64,000 nucleotides of DNA, taken from NCBI GenBank assembly GCA_019915135.1, contig JAHLMK010000045.1:1-64000 (forward strand). Reading direction: 5' to 3'. Made by a program: the position numbers and the translations under genes. This document shows positions 604 to 37,266 of this stretch, piece after piece. A model generated the notes under the pieces. The model was not told the DNA's origin. It made no database searches and saw nothing but the letters and a program-made list of their open reading frames with translations. Each line of letters starts with the position of its first letter. Position 1 is the stretch's first letter. This stretch comes from Strobilurus pachycystidiatus (Eukaryota; Basidiomycota; Agaricomycetes; Agaricales; Physalacriaceae).

Positions 604-1643
604 ATGTTCGTTGTTCAGCGCGCTACTGCCAATGGTTGTCCAGTCGACGTCAGATTTGATTTCAGTCTACCGAGGACGGAGTGTCCTGCTATCATCGCGA
701 CTGCCCCGCCGCATTCTGCGAATATCGTCATCAAAGCGGATCAATTTGTCTTCCAGATCTGTTTGGGTGTATCTTTGTACTCGGAACCAGGTTCCACGCT
801 GATAGTCGGAGTGGACTGGTTACTGAAGTATTGGGAGTGGCGATGCTCTATGAATGAAAGTTCGTTCATCTGTTCTTGCACCTCGTTAAGTGTATTAACG
901 TAGAACAGATCGGTCCGCTTTCGCTGGCGTCGGATCTGTGATATCTTCTGTAGTCCCGTATCCGAGTGGGTCACCTCACCATTTCCTACACTCGTGCGAC
1001 GCGGATTTCGTTCGAACTCTAGCCGGCCACGGGCTTCTGCAGGCCATTGACTGTCGTCATTGGCCGCAGAGACGCGTAATCTTTTTACAACATCTGATAT
1101 TCGGTCTCTGCGAATCGGGAAATGGGACTGCTTGTCGGTATGCTATATACATTTGATTTCTGCATTGAACTTACACATTTTAGCACAATCACCAAGGAGT
1201 GCCACTCGTTCAACACTACGCCGCAAATGCTAGCTTGCTTGATGTGTTTACTGGCGATTTCGGGTCTTTCTCTCACTGTTGCTCATGAAATAGCCACGGC
1301 AGTTCGAGTAGACGTGGATCCTCGGGGATTGTACGCGCGTATTTCGCGATACTTTGCGGACCGTATATCTGCCCTGAGATATGCTTGTTTCAAAGGTGAA
1401 CGTTCCTACGCTTCCTCACGATTTGGTGACGCGTTTCACAAGGAGTCCGTTGTGTATCTGAAGACATTCGCCCACGCGCACGGAATTCCGAGACGCGATA
1501 GAACGAAGGATGAACTCCAGAATGAGATTATGGATCATTTCTTTACTGGGCGTTGTTTGTTGACGAGGAAATGGTTGATCGGGACTGCTCCGATCGGGTG
1601 CCACGAGGTTCTGATCGAATTTGTATACTCTGATAGAAACTGA
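604..1643 (+). CDS. Stand-alone paralogue 1 of the Helitron protein N-terminus (three exons)
   Basis: Proposed exons 604-859, 954-1137 and 1184-1643 give 299 residues; a donor at 890 instead of 860 would give 309. Intron 1 is phase 1 (acceptor CTGTAG) and intron 2 (1138-1183) phase 2, splitting an Arg codon as in its paralogues at 9960 and 36243. Module 1 ends in LIVGVDWLLKYW; module 2 contains IFLQHLIFGLC; module 3 has a SAP-like helix pair with FAHAHGI and ends near PIGCHEVLI. The same three modules open the Helitron protein that starts only 128 bases downstream. Function is unknown; a DNA-binding accessory or regulatory factor of the Helitron is an inference. Homology to the paralogues is seen directly; the exact first donor is uncertain. 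Confidence 0.75.
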
Positions 1644-1644
1644 A

Positions 1645-1729
1645 CCGAATCGATCCAATTCGGGGATTTTTGCCGAATCATATCGCCATGTGCTAGAATT
1701 GTATGGCACGCTGGTAAATCATATATATT
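1645..1729 (+). promoter_or_regulatory. Palindrome and TATA box before the Helitron gene
   Basis: An inverted repeat CCGAAT (1645-1650) / ATTCGG (1658-1663) lies directly after the upstream gene's stop codon, and a TATATATT tract at 1721-1729 lies 43 bases before the ATG at 1772. The palindrome encloses GAATCGATC, a core also present in the palindromic array at 13624. That it is an operator is inference; the TATA spacing is consistent with a normal fungal core promoter. Confidence 0.5.
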
Positions 1730-1771
1730 CGTGGTTTTGTCTTTGATGCTGGTTCCCACATTTCGATATAC

Positions 1772-4700
1772 ATGTTGCGCGTTATTAGCCTCGACGGAAT
1801 ATTCTTGAACATTGTTTCCGCATCTAACCAGGCACAGACGTTCGTCTCGTCCTCTTGGTTGGCGGTTCATTCGTATCCTTCGAATGTTCCGCAGATCTTC
1901 GCTCTCGAGTGCGATGGCCCGTCCGGTCGGCGCATCATTCACGAAACCTGTTATCCTTCGCATATGACGGGTGTAGATGTCTGCATTGGCACCGTAGCTA
2001 CCAACTTATATGGTGAGGTTCCGAATTATAGTAAATCGATCTCCCTCGCTATACATCGGACAGATACGTTGGAAGTTCAACAGATAACTGATGAAGGGGT
2101 CGTTCAAGCCCGCGATAATGAGGTATGAGCCCTTCATGCGGAATCAATGATGTCGCGGTTCACCACTTTCTAGTTACTTGCACGCTCAGGTGTTGATTCT
2201 TCGGGGTCTAGTGCTATATTGGGCACCACAAATGCGTCTGAGCACGTTACACTTACAAAGATCGACGGTCCAATAGAACGTGCCGATCCTTCGGGGGTCA
2301 GCGCTGTACCGTATGCCTCGGGCACTACACCTGCTGCCGAGCAAGTTACATATACACCAAATACCACTGTTCGTGAAAGGTTGCACGGCTCCGGAGCTCG
2401 TGTTGAAAGCGGACCGTCAAATATGTTCGATACTGTCGCAGAGCGTATACTTGTTGGCTGGTTATTCGGACGAGCCAAAGATGGTGCCAATGCGGGTATT
2501 TACGTCCAGGCCAGACAAGTCCAGAGTGTCTTGCAGAGGTTGTACAGAGAACACAGTATCGAGTGGAACTTGGAAGCTACTATGGAAGATGCTCGACGTG
2601 TATTATTATCTCATATCATGAACGGTGAATGTTGTAGATCATCAGCAATGCACGAGGAACACGGTGTAGAAGATGGAAGTGTTTGCTCCGAAGTAAGATC
2701 TGCAGTCCCGTCCGCTTTACATTTAAAGCAGATGCTACTCACCAAAGTACTCACTTACTCTGGCAAGGAAGCACATTTGAACGTGCAAAAACTGCGAGAT
2801 GTTGCGTGTAGCTTGGGAGTATCATTTGTGGGTGCACCGTCACGCGGACATTTGATCAAGTTACTTGAATCTAAATTGGTTCGTATGAAGGAGCAGGCTT
2901 CGAGTATTGAGCTTGTTCCGGACTTTCCATTGGCCATTCTGAAGAGTATGGCCAGAGCACACGGCATTGACAATAATGGTGTTGAAGATAAACATATCCT
3001 GCGTGTTGCATTGGATACACATTTCATACAGAGTCAATGTGGGATCCATCACAGTCATTCTGAAGAAAATGTTGATAGTCATGGCGATGTGTGGACTGAA
3101 AAATATCCAGATATTGACGAAGGTGAAGCTGCATTGGAACATATGCTGATTGTTATGAAAAGAGACGTACAGACATTGTCAAAGAAGTCCCTTATACGGA
3201 TTATGGCAGTTCACGGTGTCGTTGCCCGTGATAGGGAAGGCGTCACGTATCCAAAACCAACCATGAAACAGAGACGAAAGGCCATGGAAGATTATGTCCG
3301 TTCTTTGGGCAAGCGGAAGAAGTATGCTAAATTCAAGACGAGTCTAACAGAGCGCAGAGATACACGCGAGCAAGACCGAGATAAAGTGAATAGTATTCGA
3401 GCTAATTGGCCTAGGACACCTTCGGGTGCACGGAAACTGGAGCTTGTGGAAAAGTTCATTGCGGAAACTAGTAGCATTTCTTTACAGACCGCAGTGTGCG
3501 CATCGTGTGCTGGTAACTGCAGAATGAATGTGTTGTCTGTGATTCCTGTAAAAGACATCGATTTATCTTGTCTTGCGGGTGATTTTGGCGAGTATTGGCT
3601 AGGGACTCGTCAAAATGTGCCCTATAGTTCTGGACCATTGAAGGGTCTGCAAGTGTGTGAGCTGGGTATTGTGAATTCAAGTGAAGATATAAGTATAAGA
3701 CTATGCAAGATGTGCCATAACGCTATTAAGCGAAAACGGGTCCCTCGTTTGTCTCTTGCCAACGGAATGTACGTTGGACCTGTGCCTGAGGAACTGCGTG
3801 GATTGACTGTTGTAGAGGAGTCCATGATCTCTCTTTGTAGGGCCAAGAATTGGATAGTGCAGCTTAGAGAAGAGTCTAAGCAGGGAGAAAATGCAAGGGG
3901 AGACGGCTTACAGGCAGCCCAGGACTCATCCAACACATTTGTACAGAAGGGTATGCGAGGTCATGTCATAGTATACCCGTCAGAACCGACAAAGGTGGCA
4001 AGCATTTTACCACCCTCTATTGAAGACATTGTCACTCCTATTTGTGTGTTGTTTGTTGGTGCACATAAGCCGTCTCTGGAATGGTTTCAGAAGAAGGCAA
4101 AGCCTCTTGTAGTTGATGCTTCGCGTGTAAGGAGAGCCTTGAAGTGGTTGAAAGCAAACAACCCACTCTACCATCATATAGAGCTGAACAACTCTGTGTT
4201 GGATGCATTGATTGAAAAGCCCGGTCTTCCATACGCAGTCCGACACGTTGTTCCTAGTACTTCCGGAGACACCCTGACCAGTAGATATGACGCGCCTGTG
4301 GAAAATGAGTTTGAAGTTGACGATGAGATTCCTTTTGAAAATGTGGTGATTACTGATTTGAACGGGGGCGAAACGTCCACTAAATTACGTGCAGGAGCTC
4401 TTCGTCACATCAAGCGAGGTAGAGGACATCTTGAGATTCCTCATGGTCCCAAACCAGTCAATGAGTTCTATGAACCGTCGTTGTTTCCAAGAATGTACCC
4501 AACTTTGTTTCCTTACGGTATAGGGGGCTTTGAGGATCGTGCAAGAACCGTACCTGTTAGTCTGAGGGCGCATGTTAAGCATTTGTTCAATCTTAGTGAC
4601 CGTCGGTTTCAAGAGCACTACTCATTCCATTTTACTGCTTTCAATATGCTTCAGAGACGGAAAATACTTTTGAATACATATCTGAAGACCAGTAGATCGG

Positions 4701-7700
4701 CATTTGATTCCGTTGCAAAGTCGTTTGCAGATGTATCGCCTGCTACGCTTCACACAGTTACGGAACGTATGGCCTCTGGAGATTATACCACAGCAAATAC
4801 AGCAGAAGAGTTGCAGGCGGTCAACTTAATGAAGGAGGTTCGTGCGGTCACGTCAGATGTAGAAGGGTCTTCATCTAGTAAGACTGTAATGCGTAATGAG
4901 ATCCGTGGTTTGATGATGGACAAAGGCTTACCAAGTTTTTATTTGACAATAAATCCGGCAGATGTGTATAATCCTGTGGTGAAGTTTCTTGGAGGAGCCG
5001 ACATTGACGTTGACAAGCTGTTGCCAAAAGATGTTCCTGATTATCGAGAGCAATCTTATCTTATTGCAAAGAATCCGTCGGTAGCTGCTCGGTTTTTTAA
5101 TGTATATATGAAGGCCTTTATTCGAACTTTGCTGGCATATGACGGGGCAACAACATATGATGATGGGGTCCTTGGAGTGGTAAATGCATACTACGGATGT
5201 GTCGAAGCTCAAGGTCGTGGAACACTTCATTGTCATATGCTTGTTTGGTTGGAGGGAGCATTGAATCCTGATGAGATTAAGCATCGAATAGGAAACGATA
5301 ACGACACTGGTTTTCGTGATAGGCTCCTTGCTTTTTTGGATGATGCTATCAGCAACTCCGTTCCTTTGTGGGACGACACACATCCTCAGGTTGCGGCAGA
5401 TAACATACATGCGTGCAAGGTGCGGGGTCCCCAGCGGAATGATTTGAGTAGTGACTGTTTAAGGTTGGCTGAGAAACGCGACCTCCATCATGTTGTCAAG
5501 TCTTGTCAGATTCACCAACATAGTCGCACTTGTTACAAATACTGTAGACCCGGAGAGCCATTGGAATGTCGCTTTGATATGTGTGAGGAAAACTTTGAGC
5601 CCATATCGACATATGATTATGATACTGGCGAACTCAAGTTGAGATGTTTGGATGGTCTAGTAAACAATTTCAACGAAACAGTTATACGTGCCATGCGCTG
5701 TAACATGGATATCAAATTTATTGGGTCTGGAGTATCTGCAAAAGCTATACTATATTATATTACTGATTATATCACCAAGGCTCAGCTGTCAACACATGTT
5801 TCATATGCTGCTCTTGAGGAGACAGTGAAGCGTATGGGGGAATGTGATCCTAACGATGATTCTGTGACAGTTAGAGGGAAGAAGTTATTACAAAAATGCG
5901 CATATTCCATGTTATCTCATCAGGAACTATCCTCACAACAGGTTGTTTCATATCTGATGGACTATGAAGATCATTTTACAAGTCATAGTTACCGCAATCT
6001 TTTTTGGAGAAGTTACGAAAAGTACATAGATGATCAGCAACCATCTCCAGAATGCGGTCTGAAGCCCATATTCTCCGATATGGACTCTGTACTTGCATTT
6101 GAAAACAACAGTGTTCCGTTCAGAGAAACTGTACAGACGAGCCAATCTGAAAATATGAGTGAAAGTGTTGTACCGGAGACTGATACTGAGAACACGCATG
6201 AAGAATATTCCAATTCAGGAAGACTGACTCCATATGACAATGATTATGATGAGGAGTTACAAATGTTTGATGTTGACGGTGTACCTTGTGTGTCTGATGA
6301 AAATTCAGAACTGGACAACATCCACATCGAGAATGAACATCAGTCAGAAGACGCTAAAGACGATGACAATGACGAGGATGTGCTCATTGCTGTCAATGAA
6401 CGTGGTCAGCTTGTGGAAAGACCCTCATTTGTGCAAGATTATGTCAATAGAGGACATGTTTTAGCAGATATCAATGTGTGGGAGTACACTGCTCGTGTTA
6501 AAAAAGAGAGTAGTAAACGCCGTAAGGGGCCACTGGATGAAAATGACGAGGATGCCAGCATTGAAGACAACTTTGAGCTAGGGGACGATGTTGACTACGT
6601 TGATGTACTGGTTGACAATCTGACTAATCAAACTTCAAATGTAGATCAGAAATGGGGAGATCTCGATTCAATACTCTCAGAGAATACAAAAAGTAGACCT
6701 AGTTTCCCATTTTGTGCAGAATTTCTGGAAGGCAGTCGATATAAGCAGGTTGTAGTTCATCCCAATAGACGATATGTTCCTGTTCCATTGGGTGCAGCAA
6801 TCCCAAGACGAGATAGGCCAGAGGTCTACCCGCGGTATTGTAGATTGATGCTTGTGTTATTCAAGCCATGGGTATCTGTCAATGATCTGCGGATGGTTGG
6901 TGAAACATGGCCGTCTGCATTTGCTACGTTCAGTAGTGTTTGTAGTCATCGAATTCGTGCTATTATGAACAACATTCAGCTTCTTCATGAATGCAAAGAC
7001 AGTCGCGACGATCACTTTGCCAATAGACGTAGTAGAGTTCGAAGTATCACAAGATTCCGAAAGCCACAGAATGGTCTGTTCGAGGACAATTTTGACGGCG
7101 AATCCAACACAAATGAAGCTATACTGAGTCACCTTTTGGATATGGAACGTGCAACTGCGAATCAGGTAGTTAGCAGTAATCTCAATGCAGAACAGTGTGT
7201 AGCTCATGCTGAACGAGCTGGAATGTTCGAAACATCTCCGTCTTCCAGCTATGGCAGTTTGCTTGGAGACGAGTACATTGAGGAGGAGATATTGCAACCT
7301 GATCCTGACAAGGAAGCTCGATGGGAGAAGGAGTATCTTGATCTGAGGGCACGATCTCGAAGGGCTGCGTCGGACCGTGTAAAACAGACGGCAGATCCTG
7401 TACGCGATGCGCGTGTATCAGATTCTAGCGGTATTTTGAGCGACGGTTCTTCATTCCGTGAAGCAATGGACATTGCAGAGGTACTTGACACTGGTGTTCG
7501 CCAGCGTTTCAGCGTAGAGGAAGTCGAAAAGGCAGTTGACATCGAACAGGTGGTCCAAGAATGGACATTGAATCGCGATCAAGCCAAAGCATTCAGAATC
7601 ATTGCCCAACACAGTATGGACCGATCATTGCCACAGTTAAGAATGTTTCTTGATGGCCCAGGTGGCACTGGAAAATCACGTGTAATAAATGCACTCAAAA

Positions 7701-9481
7701 GCTTTTTCGAATTGAGAGGTCAAGAGAGGCGTTTTCGACTTACGTCGTATACTGGTGTTGCTGCAAACAATATTTCCGGAATGACTCTCCATTCCGCGCT
7801 CATGTTGGACCAATTTAGTAAGATGAAGAAAGACGCGACTAACCAGTCAAAATCGTCTGATGATCTTATTAGTATGTGGCGCGGTGTTGATTATTTATTC
7901 ATTGATGAAGTGTCCATGATTGGGTTAAATTTCTTGTTGAAAATCTCCGCTGCGCTGACAATTGCAAAGGAGACGGCGAGTGCTTTCGGTGGTATCAACA
8001 TCATATTTGCAGGAGATTTCGCTCAGCTGCCTCCTGTACGTGATAAAAGGTTGTACAGAGGATTCCGACCCACATCGCGCGCTGAACAAGAATGTAAGAT
8101 ATTGCAAGGCAAGCTCTTGTGGTTTAGTGTGGATACTGTCGTAACATTGACAGAGAATAAACGTCAGGCTGGGACTGGGTCTGAAGTGTTTCGTGAGCTC
8201 TTACTTAGACTCAGAAAGGGAATGTGTACTGAGGCCGATTACGCACTGCTGAGAACGCGGTTGCTAGCAAACACGCAGCTAGATTGGTCCGATCCAAAGT
8301 TGCGAGATACACCGCTCATAGTGGCAGATAACGCGTCCAAAGACGCTTTGAATGACATAGCGACTCATACATATGCTCGACGTACAAATCGGAGTGTACA
8401 TTACTACTATGCTGAAGACACGCATAGACGTGAGGTGTTTGATGGGCCGGTACGTTCTTTTCTAGAAAGTCAGACGTCGGGGAAGACGTCACAGAGACTG
8501 GGTGCACTCCCTTTAGTACTCGGAATGCCCGTGGTGGTAACATCAAACTTTGACGTTGAAGGTGGTGTCGTGAACGGAACCAAAGGTACTTTGAAGTCAA
8601 TTCGCTTCAGACAGGATCAGGAAGGGAGGCGATACGCTGTTTCAGCCGTAGTCAGTGTGCCCGGAATGATTGGAAAGTCTTTGACAAACATACCTGACAG
8701 ACATGCCGTGGTCCTTCCTGATGTCAAAGATATGCAGTTTCGACATCCGTTTACAAAACAGAACCTACAAGTCAAGCGCCATCAGATCCCCCTCATGCCC
8801 GGCTTCGCTATGACGGCTCATAAGGCACAAGGTCAGACTCTAGAAAGTGCTGTGATTGACTTGGTGAATTGTAGAGGAACCGAAGCTCCCTACGTTATGG
8901 TGTCTCGTCTTAAAAGTTTGGAAGGACTCCACATCCTGAGGGACTTCGATTTTAAGCGGATCACGTCACGTCCAGCTGAGGATTATCGAAAAGAAGTTGC
9001 GCGTATACGTGTGCTTGATCTACAAACAACAGTCAAACACGGTACTGCCGTCGACGCTGCGTATGCAGAGCAACAATTGTCACGTTATAAATTCAGAAAC
9101 GGCGTACCTAATCTGACTGTATCGCCTGAAGAGCCACCGGACGAGCGTCACTGCTCTGCTTTACAGCAGGAGATTGATCGTATCGCTATGGTTGGCGTTG
9201 ACGCGGTTCCGCATGGTCGCGGCGAGCTTGATGTGAGTGCCTCAACAAGTCCGGCTCATCGACTGTCTGAAACGAAAGGTAAACGGAGGAAAAGTACGCA
9301 ACATGCTGTTCAAACGAGTAAACATGGCACTAGTTCTAGAACAGGTCGAGCGCGTATTTCTGATCAGTCCGGATCGCAGGAGCCTGCAAAGAGACGAAAG
9401 ACGTCACATCGGACTGTGAAGCGTCCTGCCGAGGAGCCTGTAGACACACGTATGTCGGACAAGAGGCGAAGGATTATATGA
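1772..9481 (+). CDS. Helitron RepHel protein: HUH/Y2 rolling-circle relaxase plus PIF1-family helicase
   Basis: Catalyses rolling-circle transposition: the Rep part nicks and joins DNA ends, the helicase unwinds. Exon 1 is 1772-2122 and exon 2 is 2174-9481, joined over a 51-base phase-0 intron (GTATGA...TTCTAG), giving about 2,552 residues; the long frame alone has no ATG near its start, which is why an upstream exon is needed. Seen in order: N-terminal module (1-117); VLLSHIMNGEC (~260); three SAP-like stretches (~320-352, 370-402 with MARAHGI, ~454-490); CxxC pairs at ~558 and 628; Helitron-like N region from ~890; FYLTINP (~1039); HUH histidines H1136 and H1138 in LHCHMLVW; tyrosines Y1312 and Y1316 in YITDYITK; acidic linker; Walker A GPGGTGKS (1945-1952); Walker B IDEVSMIG (D2028, E2029); AGDFAQLPPV; TAHKAQGQT (~2331); basic tail with KRRK clusters (nuclear localisation likely). 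All key residues are intact, so it looks potentially active. Confidence 0.95.
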
Positions 9482-9959
9482 TAGGAGTCAATGTCGCCGT
9501 ATTGGTGACTGTACGTCATTTCACCTGCACGTGTTCGCGTTTTTGCTGAACCTTTCCACCGCCGTTCTTTCCTTCCCACCATAAAAATCTCGCTATACGC
9601 GCTACGTCGATAAACTCATGTTTTGATACCGAGGAAACGATACAACCGGTCAGTGTCCGCCATGTCTTGCCGCAGTACAGCATGTGTGCGTCCGTCGCAC
9701 ATGGACTGAATGGACCTTAGACACTATATAATCGGCGCTTGGAACTATTCCAAATTATTATTCAGATGTCATCCGATGTATTCAAAGTCTCAGATCGCTG
9801 ACACGCAGGAATAACACACTATTTAATTCGCTCTTGTCGCGAGACTTATATTGAATCCGGTTTCTCCACAATTCACTTGATCGTTCTGAATTAGTTCTCG
9901 CGAGATAAAAGGTCGCAGTCGTCGACACCATTTGACTCAAATTGTCGGATCCTCTCATC
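9482..9959. other. Intergenic, promoter of the second stand-alone gene; no other gene
   Basis: No open frame of note. A TATA-like GATAAAAG at about 9903-9910 lies 50 bases before the ATG at 9960, and GACTCAAATTG (9934-9944) resembles the CGACTCAATTG half-site of the palindromic array at 13.7 kb. The rest would serve as 3' region of the Helitron gene. Confidence 0.45.
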
Positions 9960-11088
9960 ATGTCCGGAACTTTTGTTGCCTATATTAACGGTATCGCGAT
10001 TTCTGCCATCGCTTGCTTCGCCATTCCCAAGACTTTCTGTCCGATGCAATTGGCCGGCAACTTGTCTACAGAAGGCAAGTTGCATATCGATGTTCGACAC
10101 GCAGGCCATATGTATTCGTCCGATGTGGATGTGGAAGCGTCGCCGTTGGTCGACAATCACATCCTTCTTGGTGCTAGTTGGATCGACTCGGTGTGGAAGA
10201 AGAACTCTGGCCCAGGTATATTGTCTATGACTGGTATGCACTATTCTGACACGCGCCAGTACCGTTCATATCCATGCACAAGATGTGTCGTACTTTACTC
10301 ATCGTCGACGATCACGAGCCGGAATACATTCTGAACATGGACGTATCCGATCTTGCCCTGCAACTTGCCTGTCATGGGCTCGTCGATTTCGTGCCTTCTG
10401 TACCTACCGACGATATGCCCCATCTTCTTCTGGAGCATTTGTTGTTCAACAAATGTGCGGCTGGCCTCGGTATATCGTGCAGGTAAGTACTATGCAATAT
10501 GACATCAGAGTGTATCTCACTCTAGACGTGAGCAGGGAGGTCACTGCCGAGTGCACAGTTGCTCAAGTTTCGCCAGGACAGACAGCACTTTCTTCCTTCT
10601 GGTCGTACCTTCCGCTAGCAAGTCCACAAACTCTTGCAGTCGGAGCGGCCGTATTCAAGTTGGTAGGCGATCCGGCTCAATATCGCGACCTACTCAGCCG
10701 TGTAATCGAATCCCGCATTCACGACATGCAATACACTTCGTTTAAAGGACCCAAATCCTATTGGGCCCTCCAGCTCGATCAATCATTCTTCGTCGCCGAT
10801 ACTCCTTCCATCCGCAAGTTCGCTCTTGCACACGGCATATTTGAAGCTGGAAGTACGCGGGAGAGTTTGATAGAGATGATCTTGGCGCATGCGGCAACGA
10901 GCGCCTGTAAGGTATACGAGAACACTGAACCTTTATTCGTTCCTGTTGGTTGCCACGATTGGTTGATGGCCGCTGCAGCATCGCAGAACTCTACAAACAT
11001 CTCCGGCGTTGTGCGGAGTAACAGCGTTTCGTCGGTCACGCTTTCTCGACAAACTGTTTCGCCAGAGGATATCAGTACGTCTATGTAG
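9960..11088 (+). CDS. Stand-alone paralogue 2 of the Helitron protein N-terminus (three exons)
   Basis: Exons 9960-10215, 10260-10482 and 10536-11088 give 343 residues. Intron 1 (44 nt, phase 1, GTATAT...GCCAG) and intron 2 (53 nt, phase 2, GTAAGT...GAGCAG) are supported by matching splice phase and by alignment with the gene at 36243: both read VPF after intron 1, and both have VSPG followed by ALSS after intron 2. Module 1 opens with AYINGIAIS and ends ILLGASWIDSVW; module 2 holds LLLEHLLFNKC; module 3 holds FALAHGI and ends PVGCHDWLM, followed by a 40-residue Ser/Thr-rich tail absent from the 36243 protein. The Helitron protein carries equivalents of all modules (for example VLLSHIMNGEC). 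No catalytic motif seen; a role in Helitron DNA binding or regulation is inferred from the shared modules and position. Confidence 0.8.
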
Positions 11089-11359
11089 ATACTATTATTA
11101 TGTCCGGGGTAGATACACGGTTATGACAGTCTGTATCACAATATTTCGAATGTAACTTCACTCACTTTTGTTTGTCCCTCAAATCACCATCCTCACCGCG
11201 TCGTCCGTCTATCAAACCCACGATGCGAGCGAGTCTCAGGCTTCTGAGTGGGTCGATCTTCTTCATCTCCCTGTGCTTCACTTGGTAGCGTCTTGATCGA
11301 GGTCGTCGCTATCGTGTTCGTCCCTTCCGCGACCGCCTCCTGCTTTATCCTCCGTAAGG

Positions 11360-13969: not shown

Positions 13970-14011
13970 TAAGCTGAGCGACTCCGACTCGTAGTTCCTC
14001 ATCATCACAAT

Positions 14012-16712: not shown

Positions 16713-16745
16713 CCCAGTGTCATTGTATACACATATGACATGGGC
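16713..16745. repeat. 33-base hairpin-forming motif shared with 37735-37767
   Basis: Arms CCCA-TGTCAT and ATGACA-TGGG pair, with a one-base bulge, around the loop TGTATACACAT. The same 33 bases occur at 37735-37767 with one substitution, and sequence to the right of both copies is also related (GAGGAAG followed by purine-rich DNA and GTGTGTGA/GTATGTGA). This indicates two members of a dispersed element, perhaps a MITE-like or Helitron-end sequence; element borders are not resolved. Confidence 0.65.
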
Positions 16746-17352: not shown

Positions 17353-20183
17353 ATGTCGCAACGTTCACATTTTGATCGCCCGGGCAGGTAAGTTGACGCA
17401 TTATGATCGAAATGTGTCCTTGCGTTGATATTTTATCGGTCAGACTTCCGAAAGACTTGTATCCCGTCTCCAAACACGAGGATTCTACGTGGGACACCAT
17501 TCCAAATAGTGAATGTAGGGTTATCGTGACTTGCGACTCACACCTGTACTATTCTTTGGGTTGTACCATGTTGGGACCTATCCCTGATCACAATACAATG
17601 CCTTTCGATCCATACCCGAGACCCGCTCCCGACCCCACCGTATACTTGGACCGTCACTGGGCAAGCAACCATGCTCCTTGGCAGGCTTTCTTACCGCGCG
17701 ACACTGACAGCGCCTGTCAATGCCAACTGTTCGACTGTCTCGCCTTCACACGGCAGTCCATCGCTCTGACGCCATCGCCAGGAAAGGAGTGGCGTCTTGA
17801 CCAGCATCATGTAGATCAACTCCGTGAACTAGAATGGGTCTTGTGCGCCTTGCGAGAAGCGTTCGTCAAGAAGATTTCCTTTGTCAACGTCAACTATACT
17901 TCGTTTCCCATCGAGCACTATAACGAGTACGGCCGCCCTCAGCGAACTCGTATCCGTGCAATCCATCGTGTCATACGCGCTCGGTCGGCACTTCTCCTTC
18001 TTGGTGCCGAAGTGTCCTTCCTGTTCGCATACTTGCAGACTACCTCTGTATCCACTACCTTTGAGTGGCGTAACGTGATTGCTTCCTGCAGAATTCCTCC
18101 CCATCTCCTCGATTTCATCGAACTATCATGGTTATTTCACCATGGTCTTTCTCATCAGGTTCGACTGCTACCCGATGAATGGTTCATTGGCAGGACAGAA
18201 CGAATAGGTGCCTTCGTTCACATGAAACATTGTAACTGGGTTCCCTTGCTCTACGTCTTTCACAACTTCCATGTTCCGTTGTGGTTGTATTTCGGCACAA
18301 CCACCGACATCTTGTCGAACCCCATCGTTCGTCTAGACCCTGGTGCTATTGAAAAGTCTGCTCGTTGGCCGATCCTATCCCACCCCGCTCCTAAACACAT
18401 CTCTACTTCCCATGCAAGGCCGGTCATACCACGTCCTCTCCACAAGGTACCTCAACCTTCGGAAGTGGATTTTACCGTCGACTCAAAGTCTGCCGCCAGT
18501 TTTCCGGATGTAGCCGTTTATGAGCCTGTTTCTCCTGGAGAAGGGACTGCATGGCAGCTACTCGGCGAGTCGTGGCAGTCCTTCCTGCTGCGACGCGATA
18601 AGCACATAGAAGAGCTCCGCCCTAACGAGAGTTCGTCGGATCGGAGAGCTCGTGAGGAGAGGGAAGCGCGCGCTTCAGACCAGAAGATGCCGTCTGGTTA
18701 TGGATGTTCGATTGTCTATGTTTGGGAGGAAGGTCCTCGGGGTTATCTTGTTCGGACTCGCATTCTCAATATTATGATGAGCTACTACTGGGCCACCTTT
18801 CCTCCCCACCAACGTCTATATTGTTCGTGGACGGATGAGTGGGATCTGATTGACGAGCTTGGCGTCGAGTCTGACGTAGAGCCTGAAGCTGAATTCAAAG
18901 ATCTCGACGACGATTTCGATGACCCTCCTCTTACTGATTTGGTGGCCCAACGCTCCGACATCGACACATCCGAAGAGGGCGAGATTATCGATATTGCTGA
19001 AACTTCTTCCACACTCTACACCCCTCCTCCTCCTCGTTTAACAGTCACCCGTATGACCGCTGCGGATGTTGAGCCTCTGGCCGTAGCTGTCATCTCACCT
19101 TTGGAGTTCTTAGCACATCGTTACGGGCTTGTGTATCCACAAGCCGACGAGGTTGTTCCTTGCGATAACACTCGTTGGAGAACGGCTCAACACTGTAGTG
19201 GCATCTACCGATGTGAACCTAGTCAGTTGCCCGTCAATCAACTGGCTTTTGCTGAGGCGACAGAACTTCTTCGTAATCTCGATCAGCTCCCGCCACAATT
19301 CTTGCATCGTTTCAATTCATGGAGTGATATGAGTCTTGACAACCCTAAACCCATCTGTCTTCGTTCCCACGTCTTCGAGGCTCGAAAGAGTACATCGTCG
19401 GCCGGTTCCGTCTATGAACTTGTTCCATTGTCGGGAGTCGTCACATGTCGGCTCTTCTTATTTACAGCAACGGATGTCCTTCATTGTATGCGATTAGACA
19501 CGCACACCATCGAAGGACTTATTTCATATCTGGTTGGGCACGGTATCCGGTATCGGCGCTGTTTCATATGGCGCCATACATTGTCCGACCTTATTCCTCG
19601 CATCCCCCGCTACATCCCAATCCGGCCTTACGGTTATATACCCGACTCGATGGAGTTCTTCCGTTACTTCCGTCGCTGCCGGGACTTGTTGTGCGATCCA
19701 AGGGTAGCGCGCGCCGCTCTTGCACGTGGTGGTATCGTGTGGCGCATAGCATTAGAGCACGTACCCTCGTCCTGGGCGAGTAGCGTTCCTACGTCGGAAA
19801 GTGTGGCGCATTGTGGACTTATTCACCCAACGATTGATGACGATCTTGTACTGGTAGAGGAACCGCTGACGGATGAACATATCGACATTATCTGTGGCGT
19901 GTATCGTGTGGAGAGAACTACGGGCGCGAAGAGTATGAGATATACGGAAAACTTCTCTTGGTTCCCTCCACCGGACATGTGGCAACAAAGCGGGATGGAC
20001 TTGGGTGTATGGACAGCAGACGCGGAGTCTTGGTTTAGAGAACGTGTCAAGTCACACGCGAACGGTCCTGTCGCGATAAGGAATCAGTCCGATTGGCGGC
20101 AGGCTTTACGTGGTGTCCGACAGCTGGTAGAACTCAGAAAGTGTACAGAACAATGCGCGGCTGATTGTATCCTAAACATGTAA
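17353..20183 (+). CDS. Large uncharacterised basidiomycete protein (924 residues)
   Basis: A 35-base first exon (17353-17387) joins exon 17444-20183 over a 56-base phase-2 intron (GTAAGT...CGGTCAG), giving 924 residues; starting instead at the ATG at 17403 inside that intron would give 926. Near the middle (~520-550) is an acidic stretch with LDDDFDDPP. The C-terminal third is rich in aromatic and charged residues, with FFRYFRRCRDLL, ALARGGIVWRIALE, a SWFPPPDMW segment and a WFRERVK segment. From memory it resembles an uncharacterised family expanded in mushroom genomes; no enzymatic motif, signal peptide or membrane segment is evident. The gene is intact in both copies. A C-terminal cysteine cluster (CTEQCAADC) is notable but too short to classify. 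Confidence 0.75.
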
Positions 20184-26030: not shown

Positions 26031-26072
26031 GTTGAGTGCGCGCGCGAGTATCACGCATCCATACCGAACATC

Positions 26073-28797: not shown

Positions 28798-28843
28798 CCG
28801 TCTCAAAGGACCGGACGAGCTATAAGTCGCGATGCGCGATACG

Positions 28844-29880
28844 TTAATGACGCATCAGATACAGCGACAAAAAGCATCTGACTGGTGGGTCGGGCGTCTG
28901 GGCGGCAGCAGACGCAGGGGTGCGCGAGGAGCCGACATATGGTTTTGGCGCGAGGTTTTGGTGCTCGCCATGCATGGTAGAGACCGACTGCTCAACGTGC
29001 TGGAAGTGCAGAATAAACCGGAACAGCAGCTGGTACCGCAGGATCGTCTGGCACGGGACGACAATCGACAGCGGGAACTTGACAATGGTCAAACGCCAAA
29101 GCGTCGATGGCTATGAGGGGCTTCTTGTCAGCGTCCTTTTCCTTGTCCTTCTTGAACACGTCGACTTCGTCTCCGTTACTGGTCTGCCCACTCTCGCCGA
29201 TGACCTTCATGAGCCATTCGTACAGACCGGACGAGGCCATCGTCACTTTGACGTCTTCGCGAAAGAGGGTATCGTCTCCGTGCACATCCGTGTTCAGTGC
29301 GAGCTCCAGCAGGCTCCGAAATTTGGCATTGGACGCGAATTTGGTCGACTTGCGCAGCTCCGTATGGGCAAGGTCGAGGAAATGAGGGAGGAAGAAGGAC
29401 TGGGAGAGGAAGAGGTAGCGCTTGAGGGAACGAAGGCGGGGTATCAGCTGCTGATGTTTCAAAAGGAGCTGTAAAATTGGGCGAGCACGCATTCTCAACA
29501 AACTCGTAGTAGAATCTGAAAATGATGAGCGTACGGGTCTGGTCGGTGATGCGTGAGCGAACCTGTCGTCATCCATGTCATACAATTCATTGATAGACGA
29601 GACGCGTTGGTTTTCGAGCCCGCATTCTCGTATGACGTTAAGGTACTTCCCTGGTCTTTGGTATGTGACTTGCCTCGGCTAGTTGCACGCCCGGCGTTCT
29701 GACCATGGTGACGTACGGCTTCCCGGCTGCTCTGCGGAGCTGGCAGTGGGATCGCCGGACATATTCTGCATGCGTTTGTAGATTAGGGTGAGGACTTCTT
29801 CGCCCTTGACTGCGATGCTACTGCTGTTCGCAAGACCGATCTTGTCGACTTCACTTATGACTGCTTTGAACTTGGCGCCT
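28844..29880 (-). pseudogene. Decayed fragment of gamma-tubulin complex component 2 (GCP2/Spc97 family)
   Basis: Read on the minus strand from 29880: [13 protein letters not shown], then IYKRMQNMSGDPTA, LRRAAGKPYVTMV in a shifted frame, LLLKHQQLIPRLRSLKRYLF, THTELRK-like segments with LDLAHTELRK, FREDVKVTMASSGLYEWL, and finally PLSIVV and TILRYQLLFRF before decay. These follow the order of fungal GCP2, which nucleates microtubules at the spindle pole body. At least two frame changes (near 29735 and 29090) and missing N- and C-terminal parts make it non-functional. It starts mid-gene exactly where the oppositely oriented dynein fragment starts. Identification rests on remembered family motifs; I am confident in the family, less so in end points. 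Confidence 0.8.
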
Positions 29881-29881
29881 A

Positions 29882-32800
29882 CACGTCGGCTTCACGATGA
29901 ACCCGCCGGATAACGGACTGGCTTCAAGGGCAGCAACCTCCCCTGCCTTGTTCAATCGTTGCGTCTTGGATTGTTTTGGTGATTGGTCAGATCAAGCCTT
30001 CTACCAAGTCGGTCTGGAGTTCACCAATAACCTCGACCTGGATCCTTCTTCCTACTACGTCCCGCCGATTTAATTTCCCATTGCGTATCGTGGACTTTCC
30101 ATGCCACCTATTCACCGAACGGCCGTTGTCAACGCTCTTGTCCACGTTCATTCCTCTTTGCATCAGATCAACAAGCGTCTTAGTCGATGCCAAGGTCGAT
30201 ACAACTATGTCACGCCGCGCCATTACTTGTCTTTGTGAGTTGGCATATTACAGTGACACGCAACTGAGATAACAGAACTATGTCAGCATCAATCATTACG
30301 TTCGCCTTTACACCGGAAAACGCGTCGAACTGGAACTTGAAGAGCAGCAGCGACGTTGGTTCAGACAAACTTCGTGGCACCGTGACGCAGGTGGAAGAAC
30401 TTCGGAAGAGTCTTGCTATCAAACGGACACAGCTGGAGGCAAAGGATGCCGAATCGAACGAAAAGTTGAAGCGCATGGTGTCCGACCAGCAACAGGCGGA
30501 GCAGAAGAAGACCGCATCCAACGAAATGCAAGCTGCCTTGGTCGAGCAAGATAAGCACATCGAGCAGAGAAAGGCCATTGCCGCAGCAGACCTCGCCAAC
30601 GCAGAACCCGCCGTTCTTGAAGCCCGAGCCGCCGTCTCCAATATCAGACGGCAGCACTTGCAAGAAGACCGAGCCATGGCCAATCCTCCGGAAGCAGTCA
30701 AATTGGTGATGGAATCCGTTTGTACTGTCCTTGGCCACATAGTTGACAGCTGGCGCACGGTTCAGGGTATCATGGGTCGTGAAGATTTCATCCAGAATAT
30801 TGTCAACTTCGACACTGCTGCCCAGATGACCAAGCATCTCCGCGACGTCATGAAAAAGGACTTTCTCAGTAGGCCCACCTACAAACTTCGAAACCGTACA
30901 GCGTGCCAGTAGGGCTTGTGAATCGTTGGTGAAGTGGGTTTTGGTCCAAGTACAGTTCTCCGACATCTTGGATCGCGTGGAGCCCCTTCGAAACGAAGCC
31001 CAATCTCTGGAAACCCAGGCGGAGACGACCAAGAAGCAGGCGACTGCGATCATTGATATGATTGCTGAACTCGAGTCGAAGATTGCGCGCACAAAGAAGA
31101 GTACGCTCTTCTGATCAGGGAAACCCAGGCCATCAAGGTGGAGATGGAGCGGGTGCAAAGCAAAGTCGATCGCCGTATGAAGCTCTTGGAAAGTCTGTCC
31201 TCCTAATGGAATGTCTACCATCGTTGGGGACGTCTTGTTATCCGCAGCATTCCTAGCGTATGGAGGCTTCTTCGACCAACACTATCGTGAAGTGATGTGG
31301 CAAGATTGTCTAATCATCTCATCGACGCAGCAATCACCTTCAAACCCGAGCACTCCTCAACGGAGTATCTATCCACCGCGGACGATCGTTTGAGCTGGCA
31401 ATCAAAGTCACTTCCAGCGGACAACTTGATCACAGATAATGCCATCATGCTCAAGCGATTCAACCGCTACCCGCGCTACCCGTTAATTATCGACCCGACA
31501 GGCCAAGCCACTTCTTTCCTCCTGAATGAATACAAGGAGCGATCGCGAAAGATCACTGTCACCAGTTTCTTGGATGAGGCGTTCCTGAAAGTGCTCGAGA
31601 GCGCCCTTCGCTTTGGCAATCCGTTGTTGATCCAAGACGTGGAGCATCTAGACCCCATCGTACTCAACAAAGAGATACGACGAACAGGTGGTCGGGTGCT
31701 CATTCGTCTCGGCAGTCAGTACATCGACTTCTCACCATCCTTCATCATGTTCCTTTCGACCCGTGATATATCGGTCGAGTTTTCTCCATATATCTGCAGT
31801 CGAGTTACGTTCGTTAACTTCACCATGACCCGAAGCAGTTTCCAAAGCCAATCTCTCGACCAAGTACTCAAAGTCGAACGTCCCGGCACGGAACGCAAGC
31901 GAAGGGATCTCATGAAGATTCAGGGTGAATTCCGCCTTCGCATCCGCACTTTGGAGAAGCTGCTTCTTCAGGCCCTCGACGAATCATCCGGAAACATTTT
32001 GGACGATGATAAGGTTATCGATACTCTGGAGACCTTGAAGCGCGAGGCTGCGGAGATCACATCTAAGGTCGAAGAGACTGATGTCGTGATGAAAGAAGTT
32101 GAACAGGTTAACGCTGAGTACCTTCCCCTTGCACAGGCCTGCACTGCGGTGTTCTTCGTCTTGGAACAGATGAACCTCGTCAATCACTTCTTCTAGTTCT
32201 CGCTGCGCTTCTTCTTGGACATCTTCTACTATATTCTGCACCACGACCCTCATCTCAAGTGTGTTTCAGATTATAGCATTCGTCGGGATATCCTCTTGAA
32301 CGACTTATTCCTGGTTGTTTACCGCAGGACGTCTCGGGCATTGCTTTATCGATATCACGTCATGCTTGCCGTATTGTTGGCACTGGTGAAACTGCGAGGA
32401 ATCGAGGACTTCACTGATGAGCTCGATTTCTTGCTAGACAGTGCAGACAACGTCGTCGCTACCGTCGGCGGCGCTACATCCTCGTATATCGCGTTCTACT
32501 CCCCCGACTAAATGTTACGCCTACATGATTACGCGAAGCAGCCCATTTTCATGTCGGTTCAGACGAGCATCGTCGAACAAGAAGATCAGTGGATTCTTTC
32601 ATCCAGTCTGCCAACCCGGAGGGATCTGTACCCAGCCCGTGGGAGCCAAGCACTCGTAAGTTTCCTGGGAGAAGGCGAACGATCGATGCATGCTAATCTT
32701 TCTATTAGCTGCTGTTGAGGCGATTCGAGCCATGTTGATCGTCAAACTTTGCTCGTGCCCTGACCGCCTACTGCAATCTATTGCCCAGTTTGTCCGCGTC

Positions 32801-34205
32801 GTGTTCAACACAGACCTTTCCCTCGAATCTGCATACGAGCTTGGTGCAGTGGTGTTAGATGAAGTACCAGCTGCCACGCCCCTCGCGCTGATTTCCGTAC
32901 CGGGACATGATGCCAGTTATCGTATCGAAAATCTCATCAAGATCAGCGGGATGAGGTTGTCTTCCGGTGCTATGGGTTCCGAAGAAGCGTTCGCGTTAGC
33001 CGATTCGGCCATTGCTGCTGCCGCCCGCTCAGGAACCTGGGTACTTCTCAAGAACGTCCATTTGGCACCACAATGGCTTTGGCAACTCGAGAAGAAGCTA
33101 CATACATTGAATCTCACTCGCAACTTCCGTCTATTCTGACGATGGAAGCCAATCCTTCGATACCTGTCAATATCCTACGACAGTCGAGGCTGATCATGAA
33201 CAAACCTCCCCCGGGTGTCAAAGCTAACTTCCTTGACTCGCACCACAGTATCCCTCCAGCGAGGCTGTCGGAAGGTTCAGCAGAGAAAATTCGCTTGTAT
33301 TTCCTTCTTGCCTTGTTCCATCCCGTTGTTTAAGAGCGTCTCCGTTACGTTCCCCTCGGCTGGAGCAAGTCCTATGACCTAAATGGTTCCGATATGGCTT
33401 CAGCATTCATCGCTATCGATACTTGGCTTTCCACTGTTTCCAATGGTCGTGCCAACATTGATCCTGTGACGATTCTTTGGGACGCTCTCCGTACACTGGT
33501 CGAGCAATCGGTGTATGGAGGACGAGTGGACAGTGATTTCGATCAAAGGATCCTTGACTCCTTCGTTGATGCCTTGTTCACCCCGTCGGCGTACAACGTA
33601 GATTTGGATCTCGTACCGTCCTTGCATGATGGTCATGTTCTCACAGCACCGGACGGCACGAAGATGGATCAATTCCTGAGCTGAATATAGAACCTGCCTG
33701 ATCGTGAACCGCCTTCATGGTTGAGCTTGCCGCCTAGTGCTGAACGGGCTATTGCTATTGCTCAAGGTCGGTACCCCTCCGGACTGCCTTAGATGTCCTA
33801 ACGTATTCTTCTAGGCAACGAACTGCTCAACAATTTGCGGAAGATGAGGCTGCTTTCAGACGACGATGACGCCAACCGCTTCGGCTGAAAACAGCGACAC
33901 GCAACCCGCATGGAGGCGCAGCTTGCATGACCGCTGCAAGAAATGGCTACAGCGGCTGCCAGAGGTCGGTGCATAGATTGTGTTGAAGCTTTCTCCGTCT
34001 GATTTGCTTGTGGAAATTCAACGTTCTGCCCCAGGCCAACGACAACCAAGACCCACTGTACCGACTGTTCTCTAGGGAAGGCGAAACTGGCCGTCGCCTC
34101 ATCGGCACGGTTCGTAGTGACCTGTCAGAACTTGTTAAAGTCTGCCGAGGGGAACTGAAGCAGACTAACCATCTACGCAGCCTCATGAGTGATTTGACAA
34201 AAAGT
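29882..34205 (+). pseudogene. Decayed fragment of cytoplasmic dynein heavy chain (AAA4 to C-terminal region)
   Basis: Dynein heavy chain is the motor of minus-end-directed transport. Starts inside AAA4 at [24 protein letters not shown], then GRYNYVTPRHYL, the coiled-coil stalk (VEELRKSLAIKRTQLEAKD), FDTAAQMTKHLRDVMKKDF, STIVGDVLLSAAFLAYGGF (AAA5), [52 protein letters not shown] and the C-terminal region to LKQTNHLRSLMSDLTK. Damage: in-frame stops (for example after NHFF at 32194, CAG to TAG; also near 30073, 32509 and 33682), many frameshifts, a deletion of about 14 codons near 31204 and a 9-base duplication near 31472. At least two introns remain in place: 32657-32709 (GTAAGT...TATTAG) and 33767-33814 (branch CTAAC), so the copy came from genomic DNA. 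Confidence 0.92.
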
Positions 34206-34851
34206 GACATCTTGTCCGGCCGAATCATTAGTTTGAAATCATTAGTTTGCTCAAAGGCGCATCGACGGAGGTGAACACCATGGTGTGGCACTCGGAGGGA
34301 GCACAGGTGTCATGGTTGACATGCCACGGTGGATAGATGCGCATCTAGGTAATCGTCCCTGTCCAGGTGACGAAAGACTGGAGATTTGCATAAAACTTCA
34401 AGAGGCGGTGCTCCAAATCCAGCGGGAGAATGAAGCCCTTCTCGATTCCGAGGGAAGTTGATACTTACCGGAGGGATCATAAAGGAACCAGCCAATGGAT
34501 GTGGTGCTGACGTATGTGGTCCAGGACGCAGACGTTAAACTAGATTTCGCATTGTCTAAATCATAGCTTCCGGTGTCTTCCCGGGAATGTGGGCATAAGA
34601 CAACACTTGGTCATCGCTGCCCAGAGCACTCGAGTGGGAACCAATTGTAAATCGCCGGTGTTCTCGGCAATCAAAGATAAGATGGCCGGGCGAACCAATG
34701 CGAACCGAACCGATCCGCATGCACATACTCCGAAATGTATTCAGGCCATCTTCATCCGCGCTTATATTACCTGCCACCATGTCTCATAACGATTGTATTC
34801 AAAGCTAATCCCTTTTGACTGTGGTCTGTGTTCTCTCTTCTTCTCGCCTCA
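34206..34851. other. Unassigned, possibly further gene scraps
   Basis: Short protein-like stretches such as EIISLLKGASTEVNTMVW (about 34235) and a coiled-coil-like LQEAVLQIQRENEALLDSE (about 34395-34450) occur in different frames. They could be pieces of other genes captured with the dynein fragment, but I could not assign them. Confidence 0.35.
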
Positions 34852-36041: not shown

Positions 36042-36133
36042 ATTTCGAGGTCAGTCTCAGAATCCGTCGTTCGGAGGTCACTAAATGGAAATAAATTGAC
36101 AGATATTCAGTTTTGTTCAATTTTTTTTGTACT

Positions 36134-36186
36134 CGACTCAATTGAATGCCATTCATATTCAAATATCCATGTACACATATATATGT
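36134..36186 (+). promoter_or_regulatory. Half-site and TATA box before the third stand-alone gene
   Basis: CGACTCAATTG (36134-36144) is identical to one half of the palindromic unit at 13685-13695, and CATATATATGT (36176-36186) is a TATA tract about 60 bases before the ATG at 36243. Regulatory meaning of the half-site is inference. Confidence 0.4.
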
Positions 36187-36242
36187 ACGCCAGAATACAT
36201 GACGGCTTATTCTTCACCGTTCCCCCTTGCAGTTGTTGAATC

Positions 36243-37266
36243 ATGTCGACTTTCCGTGCCATTATCAACGGCGTTACTGTTTCTGGCTCACCATGCTTTG
36301 CTCACCATCATACGATGTGTCCTCTCAGTATGGCTACTAAATTGTCTGTCGACAACACATCGCACGTCGTTGTTTTCATTGGTCAAAAACGATACTCGTG
36401 CGAGATTCCGGTCGTGCCGACATCGTCTCTCACAGACAGAATTTTGTTGGGTACAAGTTGGCTCGACTCGATGTGGCGAAATGGGAACATTCTAGGTAGG
36501 ATTTACTCGTTTTCATACCACCGAACTCTGACATGTGTAGTGCCGTTCGATGCCATCTACAATCTCTGCAATTCATTGATGGCTGTTAAAGACCACGAGG
36601 AAGAGTTTATCATGAACATGACCGAAAAGAAATTGTCATGTTCTCTGTCGTCCCACGGCTTGCTGGGTCGTATCACGGGTACCTATACGTCTTTGGAGGA
36701 TAAGCGAAAGATGTTACTGGACCATCTTCTCTTCGATCACTGTCGCAGAGGTGCGGGTCCAGTTTGCCGGTGCGTGAACTGTCTATGTACATCGCATGGT
36801 CTCATAAGTCCAAAGCGAGCTATCCATCCAATGTTTCAGTGGTCATGTCTCTCCGGGCTATTGCGCGCTTTCCTCACTCTTGGCGTTCATACCCCATGTC
36901 GATTCGTCTTGTCTAGCAACAATCGCTGCAGTATTCTGCACTACGCCGACGGATATCGATCTCTTCCATGCCGTCGACTCAGCTATACGGAGTCGTTTGA
37001 CCTCTATGCATTACGGTCCGGTCGTTGGATCGCGCCCTTATTGGGCCGCTCACCTCTGTCGGCAGTTCTTTGAGAACGATGCTCGGTTCATTCAACGCTT
37101 CGCAGACGCTCATCGCATCGATACGAGAAACAAAGATCGCGATGCTTTGATTGGGGATGTTCTACGCCATGCGAGGGAAGGGCAATGTGCCGACTATCGC
37201 GGTGTTGCGTCGACGTTCGTACCCATTGGCTGCCACGATTGGTTGATGTCAGAAGACAGGGAGTGA
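36243..37266 (+). CDS. Stand-alone paralogue 3 of the Helitron protein N-terminus (three exons)
   Basis: Exons 36243-36495, 36541-36769 and 36840-37266 give 302 residues. Intron 1 (45 nt, GTAGGA...GTGTAG, phase 1) is a multiple of three and open, so it could be mistaken for coding; alignment with the 9960 gene shows where it is removed. Intron 2 (70 nt, GTGCGT...TTTCAG) is phase 2 and splits an Arg codon as in the paralogues. Module 1: AIINGVTVS to ILLGTSWLDSMW; module 2: KDHEEEFIMNM and MLLDHLLFDHC; module 3: VSPG...ALSS, FADAHRI, ending PIGCHDWLM. It lies about 25 kb from the Helitron gene and next to the captured-fragment region. It lacks the Ser/Thr-rich tail of the 9960 protein. Same inferred role. 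Confidence 0.8.

What the first reader, a model, noticed from the sequence alone, without database searches (positions are those of the whole stretch)
604..37266. A satellite gene family made of the Helitron protein's N-terminal modules
Three stand-alone genes (604, 9960, 36243) share three modules and two intron positions with matching phases. The same modules open the Helitron protein: compare LLLEHLLFNKC, MLLDHLLFDHC and IFLQHLIFGLC with VLLSHIMNGEC, and FALAHGI or FAHAHGI with MARAHGI. Two of them flank the Helitron gene on the same strand, one only 128 bases away. Truncated transposase relatives are known to act as repressors or accessory factors for other transposons, so this may be a self-encoded regulator or an end-recognition partner. 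I know of no description in Helitrons.
Basis: partly seen in the sequence, partly recalled or inferred. Interest (0 to 1): 0.88.

Follow-up and report, generated by a model that had tools for sequence, protein, structure and literature searches.

The report
Helitron-borne relatives of its N-terminus
A very large rolling-circle transposon in a fungus carries three extra small genes that are an old, separate branch of the presumed DNA-binding front part of its own transposase, which suggests that it brings along its own helper or brake proteins.

Summary
Genes A (604-1643), B (9960-11088) and C (36243-37266) share a three-exon plan with intron phases 1 and 2. A profile of 102 database Helitron N-termini, run on 987 ORFs of one unit and five related loci, hits RepHel N-termini, exons 2 and 3 of A, B and C, and their relatives on C20 and (E=0.21) C28; the first unrelated ORF is at E=0.42. 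In reverse, the stand-alone profile hits 95 of 109 database N-termini at E<=0.01; three controls give 0 of 109 at E<=0.1. Exon 1 matches a retropepsin-like domain opening other Helitrons, but not securely the resident RepHel. In the tree the stand-alones form one clade (100/100) apart from RepHel N-termini: an old lineage, not recent truncations. In this genome they were found only beside RepHel sequence: in the 41.2-kb tandem unit and in two diverged remnants that keep its gene order. A role as DNA-binding partner or self-limiting regulator is inferred, not shown. Pleurotus HELPO1 'captured genes' capA, capA2 and capB look analogous in position, so side genes in Helitrons are not new; an origin from the RepHel N-terminus seems to be.

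The parts
604..1643 (+). Stand-alone gene A: exons 604-859, 909-1137, 1184-1643 (314 aa)
   Evidence: exon 3 hit by the database Helitron N-terminus HMM at E=2.9e-10, exon 2 at 0.0028
9960..11088 (+). Stand-alone gene B: exons 9960-10215, 10260-10482, 10536-11088 (343 aa)
   Evidence: exon 3 E=4.3e-4, exon 2 E=0.0076
36243..37266 (+). Stand-alone gene C: exons 36243-36495, 36541-36769, 36816-37266 (310 aa)
   Evidence: exon 3 E=6.3e-5, exon 2 E=0.0012
1772..9481 (+). RepHel gene: ATG 1772, intron 2123-2173 (a second, phase-1 intron 2013-2063 is possible), main ORF 2174-9481
   Evidence: Helitron_like_N, PIF1, DUF6570; HCHM 5228-5239, YYITDYI 5753-5773, Walker A 7661-7678
2531..2632 (+). RepHel N-terminal module matching exon 2 of the stand-alones (..LLSHIMNGEC)
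2939..3040 (+). RepHel N-terminal module matching exon 3 of the stand-alones (MARAHGI..)
3..13 (+). Left copy of an 11-bp terminal inverted repeat CCCGAAACCGA (at the contig start)
   Evidence: only two exact matches in the window, 0.01 expected
41188..41198 (-). Right copy of the 11-bp inverted repeat, in the loop of the terminal hairpin
41181..41224 (+). Right end of the unit: stem GGGCCGG/CCGGCCC (41181-41187, 41211-41217), then TTCCAGT
   Evidence: an 89% identical stretch on C1 ends at the same base; fold energy no better than shuffles
17397..20183 (+). ORF928, unknown gene that follows B also in the C28 remnant
41822..42861 (+). Second copy of gene A (second unit)
43392..50699 (+). Second copy of the RepHel main ORF
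51178..52306 (+). Second copy of gene B

Best explanation
A, B and C are a Helitron-resident gene family whose proteins are stand-alone versions of the N-terminal region of fungal RepHel: a degenerate retropepsin-like domain (exon 1) and two short modules with a conserved His and Cys (exons 2 and 3), perhaps of helix-loop-helix SAP/HeH type. Shown by sequence: the homology, its collinearity, the shared gene plan, and the linkage to RepHel in diverged remnants. Inferred: like the N-terminus of RepHel they bind the element's DNA (ends or single strand), and they act in trans as partners of RepHel in end recognition or strand handling. Because divergent paralogs are kept in one element with signs of coding constraint, I rank a helper role above a repressor or a by-product.
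For: HMM of 102 database Helitron N-termini against 987 ORFs: the hits at E<0.1 are RepHel N-termini and stand-alone exons only; the first unrelated ORF is at E=0.42. Stand-alone HMM: 95 of 109 database N-termini at E<=0.01, while reversed, shuffled and C-terminal controls give 0 of 109 each at E<=0.1. Exon-1 module against exon 1 of 11 other Helitrons: hhalign probability 96%; one of those, Trametes P0106, cut out alone, matches Asp_protease_2 at E=4e-5, just over the Pfam cut-off. The hits of two genome searches lie in unit copies or beside RepHel remnants: C20 stand-alone then RepHel, C28 RepHel tail then B-like gene then ORF928. Differences by codon position between A and the C20 gene (exon 3) 0.55/0.39/0.66, between B and the C28 gene (exon 1) 0.46/0.35/0.68. 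The N-terminal 489 aa of Helraiser are needed for ssDNA binding and cleavage (PMC4778049, passages).
Against: No binding, expression or interaction data. Five other RepHel loci here with a recognisable N-terminus (C14 twice, C13, C5, C16) gave no stand-alone hit, so the genes are not needed by all Helitrons. SAP/HeH assignment is weak: SAP_new25 E=0.068 for A only; HeH in 1 of 20 database Helitrons at E=0.012, at a position not shown. AlphaFold models are poor (mean pLDDT 43 and 37). The C28 gene is broken after exon 2 and the start of the C20 gene is not recognisable. Between A and B, exon 3, the second codon position changes as often as the first (0.57/0.58/0.69). The link to RepHel on C28 rests on a 46-aa match (E=1.4e-8). 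The exon-1 link to the resident RepHel is unproven.
Confidence: 0.5

Rival explanations
1. Self-limiting regulators: A, B and C occupy the same DNA or interface as the RepHel N-terminus and damp transposition, as truncated transposases do in other DNA transposons.
For: They hold modules homologous to the N-terminal region whose counterpart in Helraiser binds ssDNA (PMC4778049), and no nuclease or helicase domain was found in them.
Against: They are an old separate clade with long branches, not recent truncations; the unit exists in several near-identical copies, which suggests recent multiplication with these genes present.
Confidence: 0.25
2. Cargo for another task, for example countering host silencing, with modules that share ancestry with RepHel but are no longer linked to transposition.
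For: Fungal transposons carry such cargo (TET/JBP dioxygenases in Helitrons, PMC12730594, passages); the modules are diverged.
Against: No known enzyme domain was found in A, B or C by Pfam.
Confidence: 0.15
3. Passive remnants: pieces of an ancient RepHel gene kept only by the recency of the unit.
For: Helitrons capture fragments freely; this unit holds a dynein heavy-chain piece. The C28 relative is broken.
Against: Three intact genes with matching introns, open exons 2 and 3 in the C20 relative at 36% identity to A (exon 3 open in 0.15% of base shuffles), and codon-position bias in most comparisons.
Confidence: 0.1

Closest known systems
capA, capA2, capB of Pleurotus ostreatus HELPO1 Helitrons (PMC4289320, section 7 and passages read)
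   Same: Stand-alone genes inside a Helitron, downstream of RepHel, without conserved domains, about 45% similar to each other; cap genes are said to have no copies outside Helitrons (the sentence follows the account of capC to capF); capB relatives in other basidiomycetes, one at a scaffold end excepted, are reported with RepHel in the same orientation
   Different: Described as captured genes of unknown origin; no link to the RepHel N-terminus in what I read.
N-terminal domain of Helraiser RepHel (PMC4778049, passages read)
   Same: N-terminal region before Rep, DNA-binding, required for cleavage
   Different: Part of RepHel, with a zinc-finger-like motif; no stand-alone copies mentioned in the passages read; similarity to the fungal N-terminus not tested
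FoHeli / Helitron2 elements of Fusarium (PMC5148889, abstract, section 10 and passages read)
   Same: Asymmetric terminal inverted repeats, right copy 20-40 bp before the end; repeated 5' termini; joined ends and tandem copies reported
   Different: About 5-11 kb long; no stand-alone N-terminal genes in what I read
Truncated transposase repressors of DNA transposons (recalled, no call)
   Same: Binding part without the catalytic part
   Different: Usually recent deletion products of the resident transposase; here an old separate lineage

Membership tests
Helitron (element that carries the genes) | RepHel protein with HUH/Y2 Rep and PIF1-type helicase | tested here: met
   Pfam Helitron_like_N 1.8e-31, PIF1 1.4e-23; HCHM, YYITDYI and Walker A present
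Helitron (canonical) | 5' TC and 3' CTRR ends | tested here: not met
   Right end is CTTCCAGT, shared with a C1 copy; left contig ends carry TTCCCGAAACCGAA
Helitron2-like | Asymmetric terminal inverted repeats, right copy 20-40 bp inside | tested here: met
   CCCGAAACCGA at 3-13 and in reverse at 41188-41198, 0.01 expected; but the left copy is absent from the internal unit junction
Helitron2-like | Phylogenetic placement of RepHel | not tested
   No Helitron2 reference set was at hand
Family of RepHel N-terminal modules (exons 2 and 3) | Significant profile similarity both ways, collinear | tested here: met
Retropepsin-like domain (exon 1) | Similarity to Helitron exon-1 domains, one of which matches Pfam aspartyl protease | tested here: met
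   indirect: A, B and C do not hit Pfam aspartyl protease themselves, and of five Helitron exon-1 pieces one did
Retropepsin-like domain (exon 1) | Catalytic DTG/DSG motif | tested here: not met
   Absent from exon 1 of A, B, C and the resident RepHel as printed; present as DSG in P0106
SAP / HeH domain | Match above a curated Pfam cut-off | tested here: not met
   Best SAP_new25 13.3 bits against a cut-off of 26.3; low-confidence helix-loop-helix in the model of B exon 3
Pleurotus cap genes | Sequence similarity to capA, capA2 or capB | not testable with these tools
   Sequences not held; no supplement look-ups allowed
Transposition repressor or helper | Effect on transposition in trans | not testable with these tools
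   Needs experiment

The most novel reading that the evidence does not exclude
Some Agaricomycete Helitrons are multi-protein systems: beside RepHel they encode a conserved family of N-terminus-only proteins (pseudo-retropepsin plus two DNA-binding modules) that work with RepHel at the element's ends, and the 'captured genes of unknown origin' of Pleurotus HELPO1 are members of it.
Probability: 0.35. Interest if true: 0.8.

Novelty: new variant of a known kind. Interest (0 to 1): 0.62.

Why it matters
Helitrons are usually described as one-protein elements that pick up host fragments. A lasting side-gene family related to the front of RepHel would mean that they can carry dedicated trans-acting partners or brakes. 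It offers a testable origin for the capA, capA2 and capB genes of Pleurotus and for capB relatives in other basidiomycetes, and a ready set of proteins for testing how the poorly understood N-terminus of RepHel recognises DNA. The retropepsin-like opening domain seen in such Helitrons is itself unexpected.

Tried and rejected
Chance similarity was rejected by reciprocal profile searches with controls. Recent truncation of the resident RepHel was rejected by the tree, with cautions: branches are long (window RepHel 2.39), the program flags some joins of long branches as unsafe, only 40 of 92 eligible database N-termini were used, and within the clade the C20 gene, A-like by place and best tblastn score, groups with B and C (98/92), not with A.

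Searches that led nowhere. Protein database search with the three stand-alones: no hit at E<=0.01. By the tool's description it needs shared exact 5-residue words and lengths of 0.55 to 1.75 times the query, so it is weak for relatives at 36-38% identity and blind to single exons. RepHel ORF residues 1-440: no hit, while residues 560-1040 gave 288, so the database does hold fungal Helitrons and the blank is one of sensitivity. Viral contigs: none. Stand-alone modules beyond residue 1200 of the 120 listed Helitron proteins: none at E<1, so no fused neighbour was seen. Structure prediction of B exon 3 (3 rows) and of the RepHel N-terminus (single sequence) was too poor for a fold search, which I did not run. 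The right-end hairpin does not fold better than shuffles. The 14-mer seen at the left contig ends was not found as a doubled pattern; that search also missed the doubled copy at the very start of C53, which lacks its first base.

Literature: searches are the searches behind 'not described'. No paper holding 'Helitron', 'SAP domain' and 'fungi' was found. Among the 12 listed of 39 papers I saw none on a retropepsin domain of Helitrons. A later Pleurotus paper (PMC4905642, passages) showed nothing on the origin of the cap genes in the passages seen. Only open PMC papers are held.

Full report
What was checked. The window is the first 64 kb of an 84-kb contig (C45) of a 51.8-Mb genome; several of its contigs begin with CCCTAA-type telomere repeats. 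C45 consists of head-to-tail copies of a 41.2-kb unit: 99.88% identity over 43 kb, 2 mismatches and 39 gap openings; a third copy, cut off by the contig end after 1.9 kb, is 99.0% identical to the first. Contigs C53, C55 and C56 (20,000 of its 26,120 bases fetched) are further copies at 99.8-99.99%. A full unit holds RepHel, genes A, B and C, ORF928 and DNA resembling other places in the genome.

The genes. A, B and C have three exons with phase-1 and phase-2 introns at the same places; the models are my choice among 5, 19 and 4 stop-free ones. C is 38% identical to B and 24% to A. Pfam gives nothing for B and C and a sub-threshold SAP match for A. The C20 relative keeps the phase-2 intron and the C28 relative the phase-1 intron, as I read the sequence printed. 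In the RepHel genes on C14 and C16 the splice sites that fit after the exon-1 module are also phase 1 (my reading; on C5 the donor is ambiguous). The resident RepHel can be read with such an intron but does not need it.

Homology to RepHel. Pairwise BLAST is weak (E=0.008). Profiles are decisive. Stand-alone exons 2+3 against the N-termini of window and C20 RepHel: score 44.0, 200 shuffles at most 22.2; against C14/C5/C16: 29.7, at most 22.7; against all five together: 30.6, at most 19.7. Single sequences: window 39.0, C14 29.5, C20 27.4, C16 only 22.1, against at most 16.6 for 26 pieces of the rest of RepHel and of ORF928. One search returned 288 RepHel relatives, 120 of them listed; the names given are Hypsizygus, Ephemerocybe, Collybiopsis, Phlebia and Trametes (Agaricomycetes, recalled). 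Of the 120, 109 have more than 150 aa before the place of RepHel ORF residue 520; 11 were dropped. None of the 109 is close to the five N-termini of this genome used here: at most 37.5% identity over 60 aa or more. The stand-alone HMM hits 37 of 109 at E<=1e-6, 77 at 1e-3 and 95 at 0.01; reversed, shuffled and C-terminal controls give 0 of 109 each at 0.1 (reversed best 0.17, 28 of 109 at E<=10). In reverse, an HMM of 102 database N-termini of at least 300 aa, not seeded with the stand-alones, was run on 987 ORFs of at least 40 aa from one unit and the fetched C20, C28, C14, C5 and C16 stretches. Hits: RepHel N-termini (5.3e-58 to 4.9e-11), exon 3 of the C20 gene (4.8e-11), of A (2.9e-10), C (6.3e-5) and B (4.3e-4), exon 2 of C (0.0012), A (0.0028), B (0.0076), of the C20 gene (0.091) and of the C28 gene (0.21); the first unrelated ORFs are at 0.42 and 0.97.

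Exon 1. Against exon 1 of the window and C20 RepHel the test failed (13.0; 14 of 100 shuffles as high); against C14/C5/C16 it was marginal (18.1; 1 of 100); against all five together 18.6, with 200 shuffles at most 17.6. As an HMM it finds 2 of 109 database N-termini at E<=0.01 (P0026 2.4e-4, P0085 0.0019); reversed and shuffled controls reach 0.94 and 0.76. With eight database exon-1 domains joined to C14/C5/C16 the match is clear: 49.8 over 73 columns; of 200 shuffles one reached 131 through an 8-column gap artefact, the next 21.2. The window and C20 exon 1 against that same profile gave 21.3 (probability 14%; 1 of 200 shuffles as high, not looked into), which is suggestive at best. The database domains share a VVLGxDW-like motif; 10 of 109 N-termini show it in their first 220 aa, 0 of 109 reversed. 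Many database ORFs probably lack exon 1, being single-frame predictions (inference). Trametes P0106, cut to residues 1-103, matches Asp_protease_2 (4e-5) and RVP_2 just above their cut-offs and keeps a DSG motif; the other four pieces tested gave no Pfam hit, and the precomputed domains of the full P0106 list no protease. A, B, C and the resident RepHel exon 1 lack DSG/DTG, so I read exon 1 as a degenerate retropepsin-like domain.

Origin. In a 48-row tree (4 stand-alones, 4 RepHel N-termini of this genome, 40 of 92 eligible database ones) the stand-alones are one side of a branch with 100/100 support; B and C are sisters (100/99), and the C20 gene joins them (98/92) rather than A. The window RepHel falls elsewhere, on a long branch. 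So the family looks old. Differences by codon position: A and C20 gene, exon 3, 0.55/0.39/0.66; B and C 0.51/0.45/0.65; B and C28 gene 0.46/0.35/0.68 (exon 1) and 0.62/0.49/0.81 (exon 2, 37 codons); but A and B 0.57/0.58/0.69. Most fit constraint on the protein.

Linkage. Searches of the genome with C (23 hits) and with A (33 hits), exon by exon and lower bounds, found the family only in unit copies, C20 and C28. On C20 the stand-alone gene lies upstream of a frame-broken RepHel on the same strand, whose pieces are 39-73% identical to the window's; no B follows within about 1.3 kb. On C28 a RepHel C-terminal remnant (46 aa, 48% identical) is followed by a B-like gene and then by an ORF928 relative (66% identical), on the same strand and in the order of the window. 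So both loci outside the unit are beside RepHel sequence. Against a general role: five other RepHel loci with a recognisable N-terminus gave no stand-alone hit.

Mechanism. In Helraiser the N-terminal 489 residues are needed for ssDNA binding and cleavage (PMC4778049, passages). Proteins made only of the fungal counterpart may therefore bind DNA without cutting it. I rank helper or partner (0.5) over self-limiting regulator (0.25), other cargo (0.15) and by-product (0.1), because divergent paralogs are kept together in an element that seems to have multiplied recently. This step is inference.

Known relatives. Castanera 2014 (PMC4289320, section 7 and passages) reports capA, capA2 and capB in HELPO1 Helitrons: downstream of RepHel, expressed, no conserved domains, about 45% similar; capB relatives in other basidiomycetes are reported with RepHel in the same orientation. 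They were called captured genes, of unknown origin. Position matches gene B, but I could not obtain their sequences. The element itself resembles Helitron2/FoHeli (PMC5148889), with inverted repeats, a non-canonical 3' end and tandem copies. It is much larger than the 6-14 kb given for fungal Helitrons in a 2019 review, and near the 39 kb given for maize (PMC6431247, passage).

Noticed in passing
window 1-64000; contigs C45, C53, C55, C56: The whole window is a 41.2-kb unit in head-to-tail repeats; two contigs begin at the unit's left end (with 14-bp repeats TTCCCGAAACCGAA absent from the internal junction) and two end at its right end. A tandem array, circle or linear extrachromosomal form of a giant Helitron, or assembly breaks at unit ends, are all possible.
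   Followed up: partly
window 29878-34227: 91% identical to C8:1552500-1556893 and coding for part of dynein heavy chain, probably captured; the adjacent 28954-29879 is 84-88% identical to C16.
   Followed up: partly
window 37849-41224: With one gap, 87-90% identical to C1:4636302-4639480, which ends at exactly the same hairpin plus CTTCCAGT: an older copy, or the donor of a new 3' end.
   Followed up: partly
window 17397-20183: ORF928, no Pfam or PDB match, has relatives at seven further places; on C28 one follows a B-like gene, and on C1 and C19 (the latter a 0.6-kb piece) one lies about 4-6 kb upstream of the Rep domain of a RepHel on the same strand.
   Followed up: partly
P0106 residues 1-103 (Trametes sanguinea Helitron protein): A RepHel protein that opens with a retropepsin-like domain with DSG motif, just above Pfam cut-offs when cut out alone.
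   Followed up: partly
window 16714-16743 and 37736-37765; L053 4-33: A 30-bp, roughly palindromic sequence around TGTATACACATATGACA occurs twice in the unit, beside the C28 remnant and at two more places on C28.
   Followed up: no
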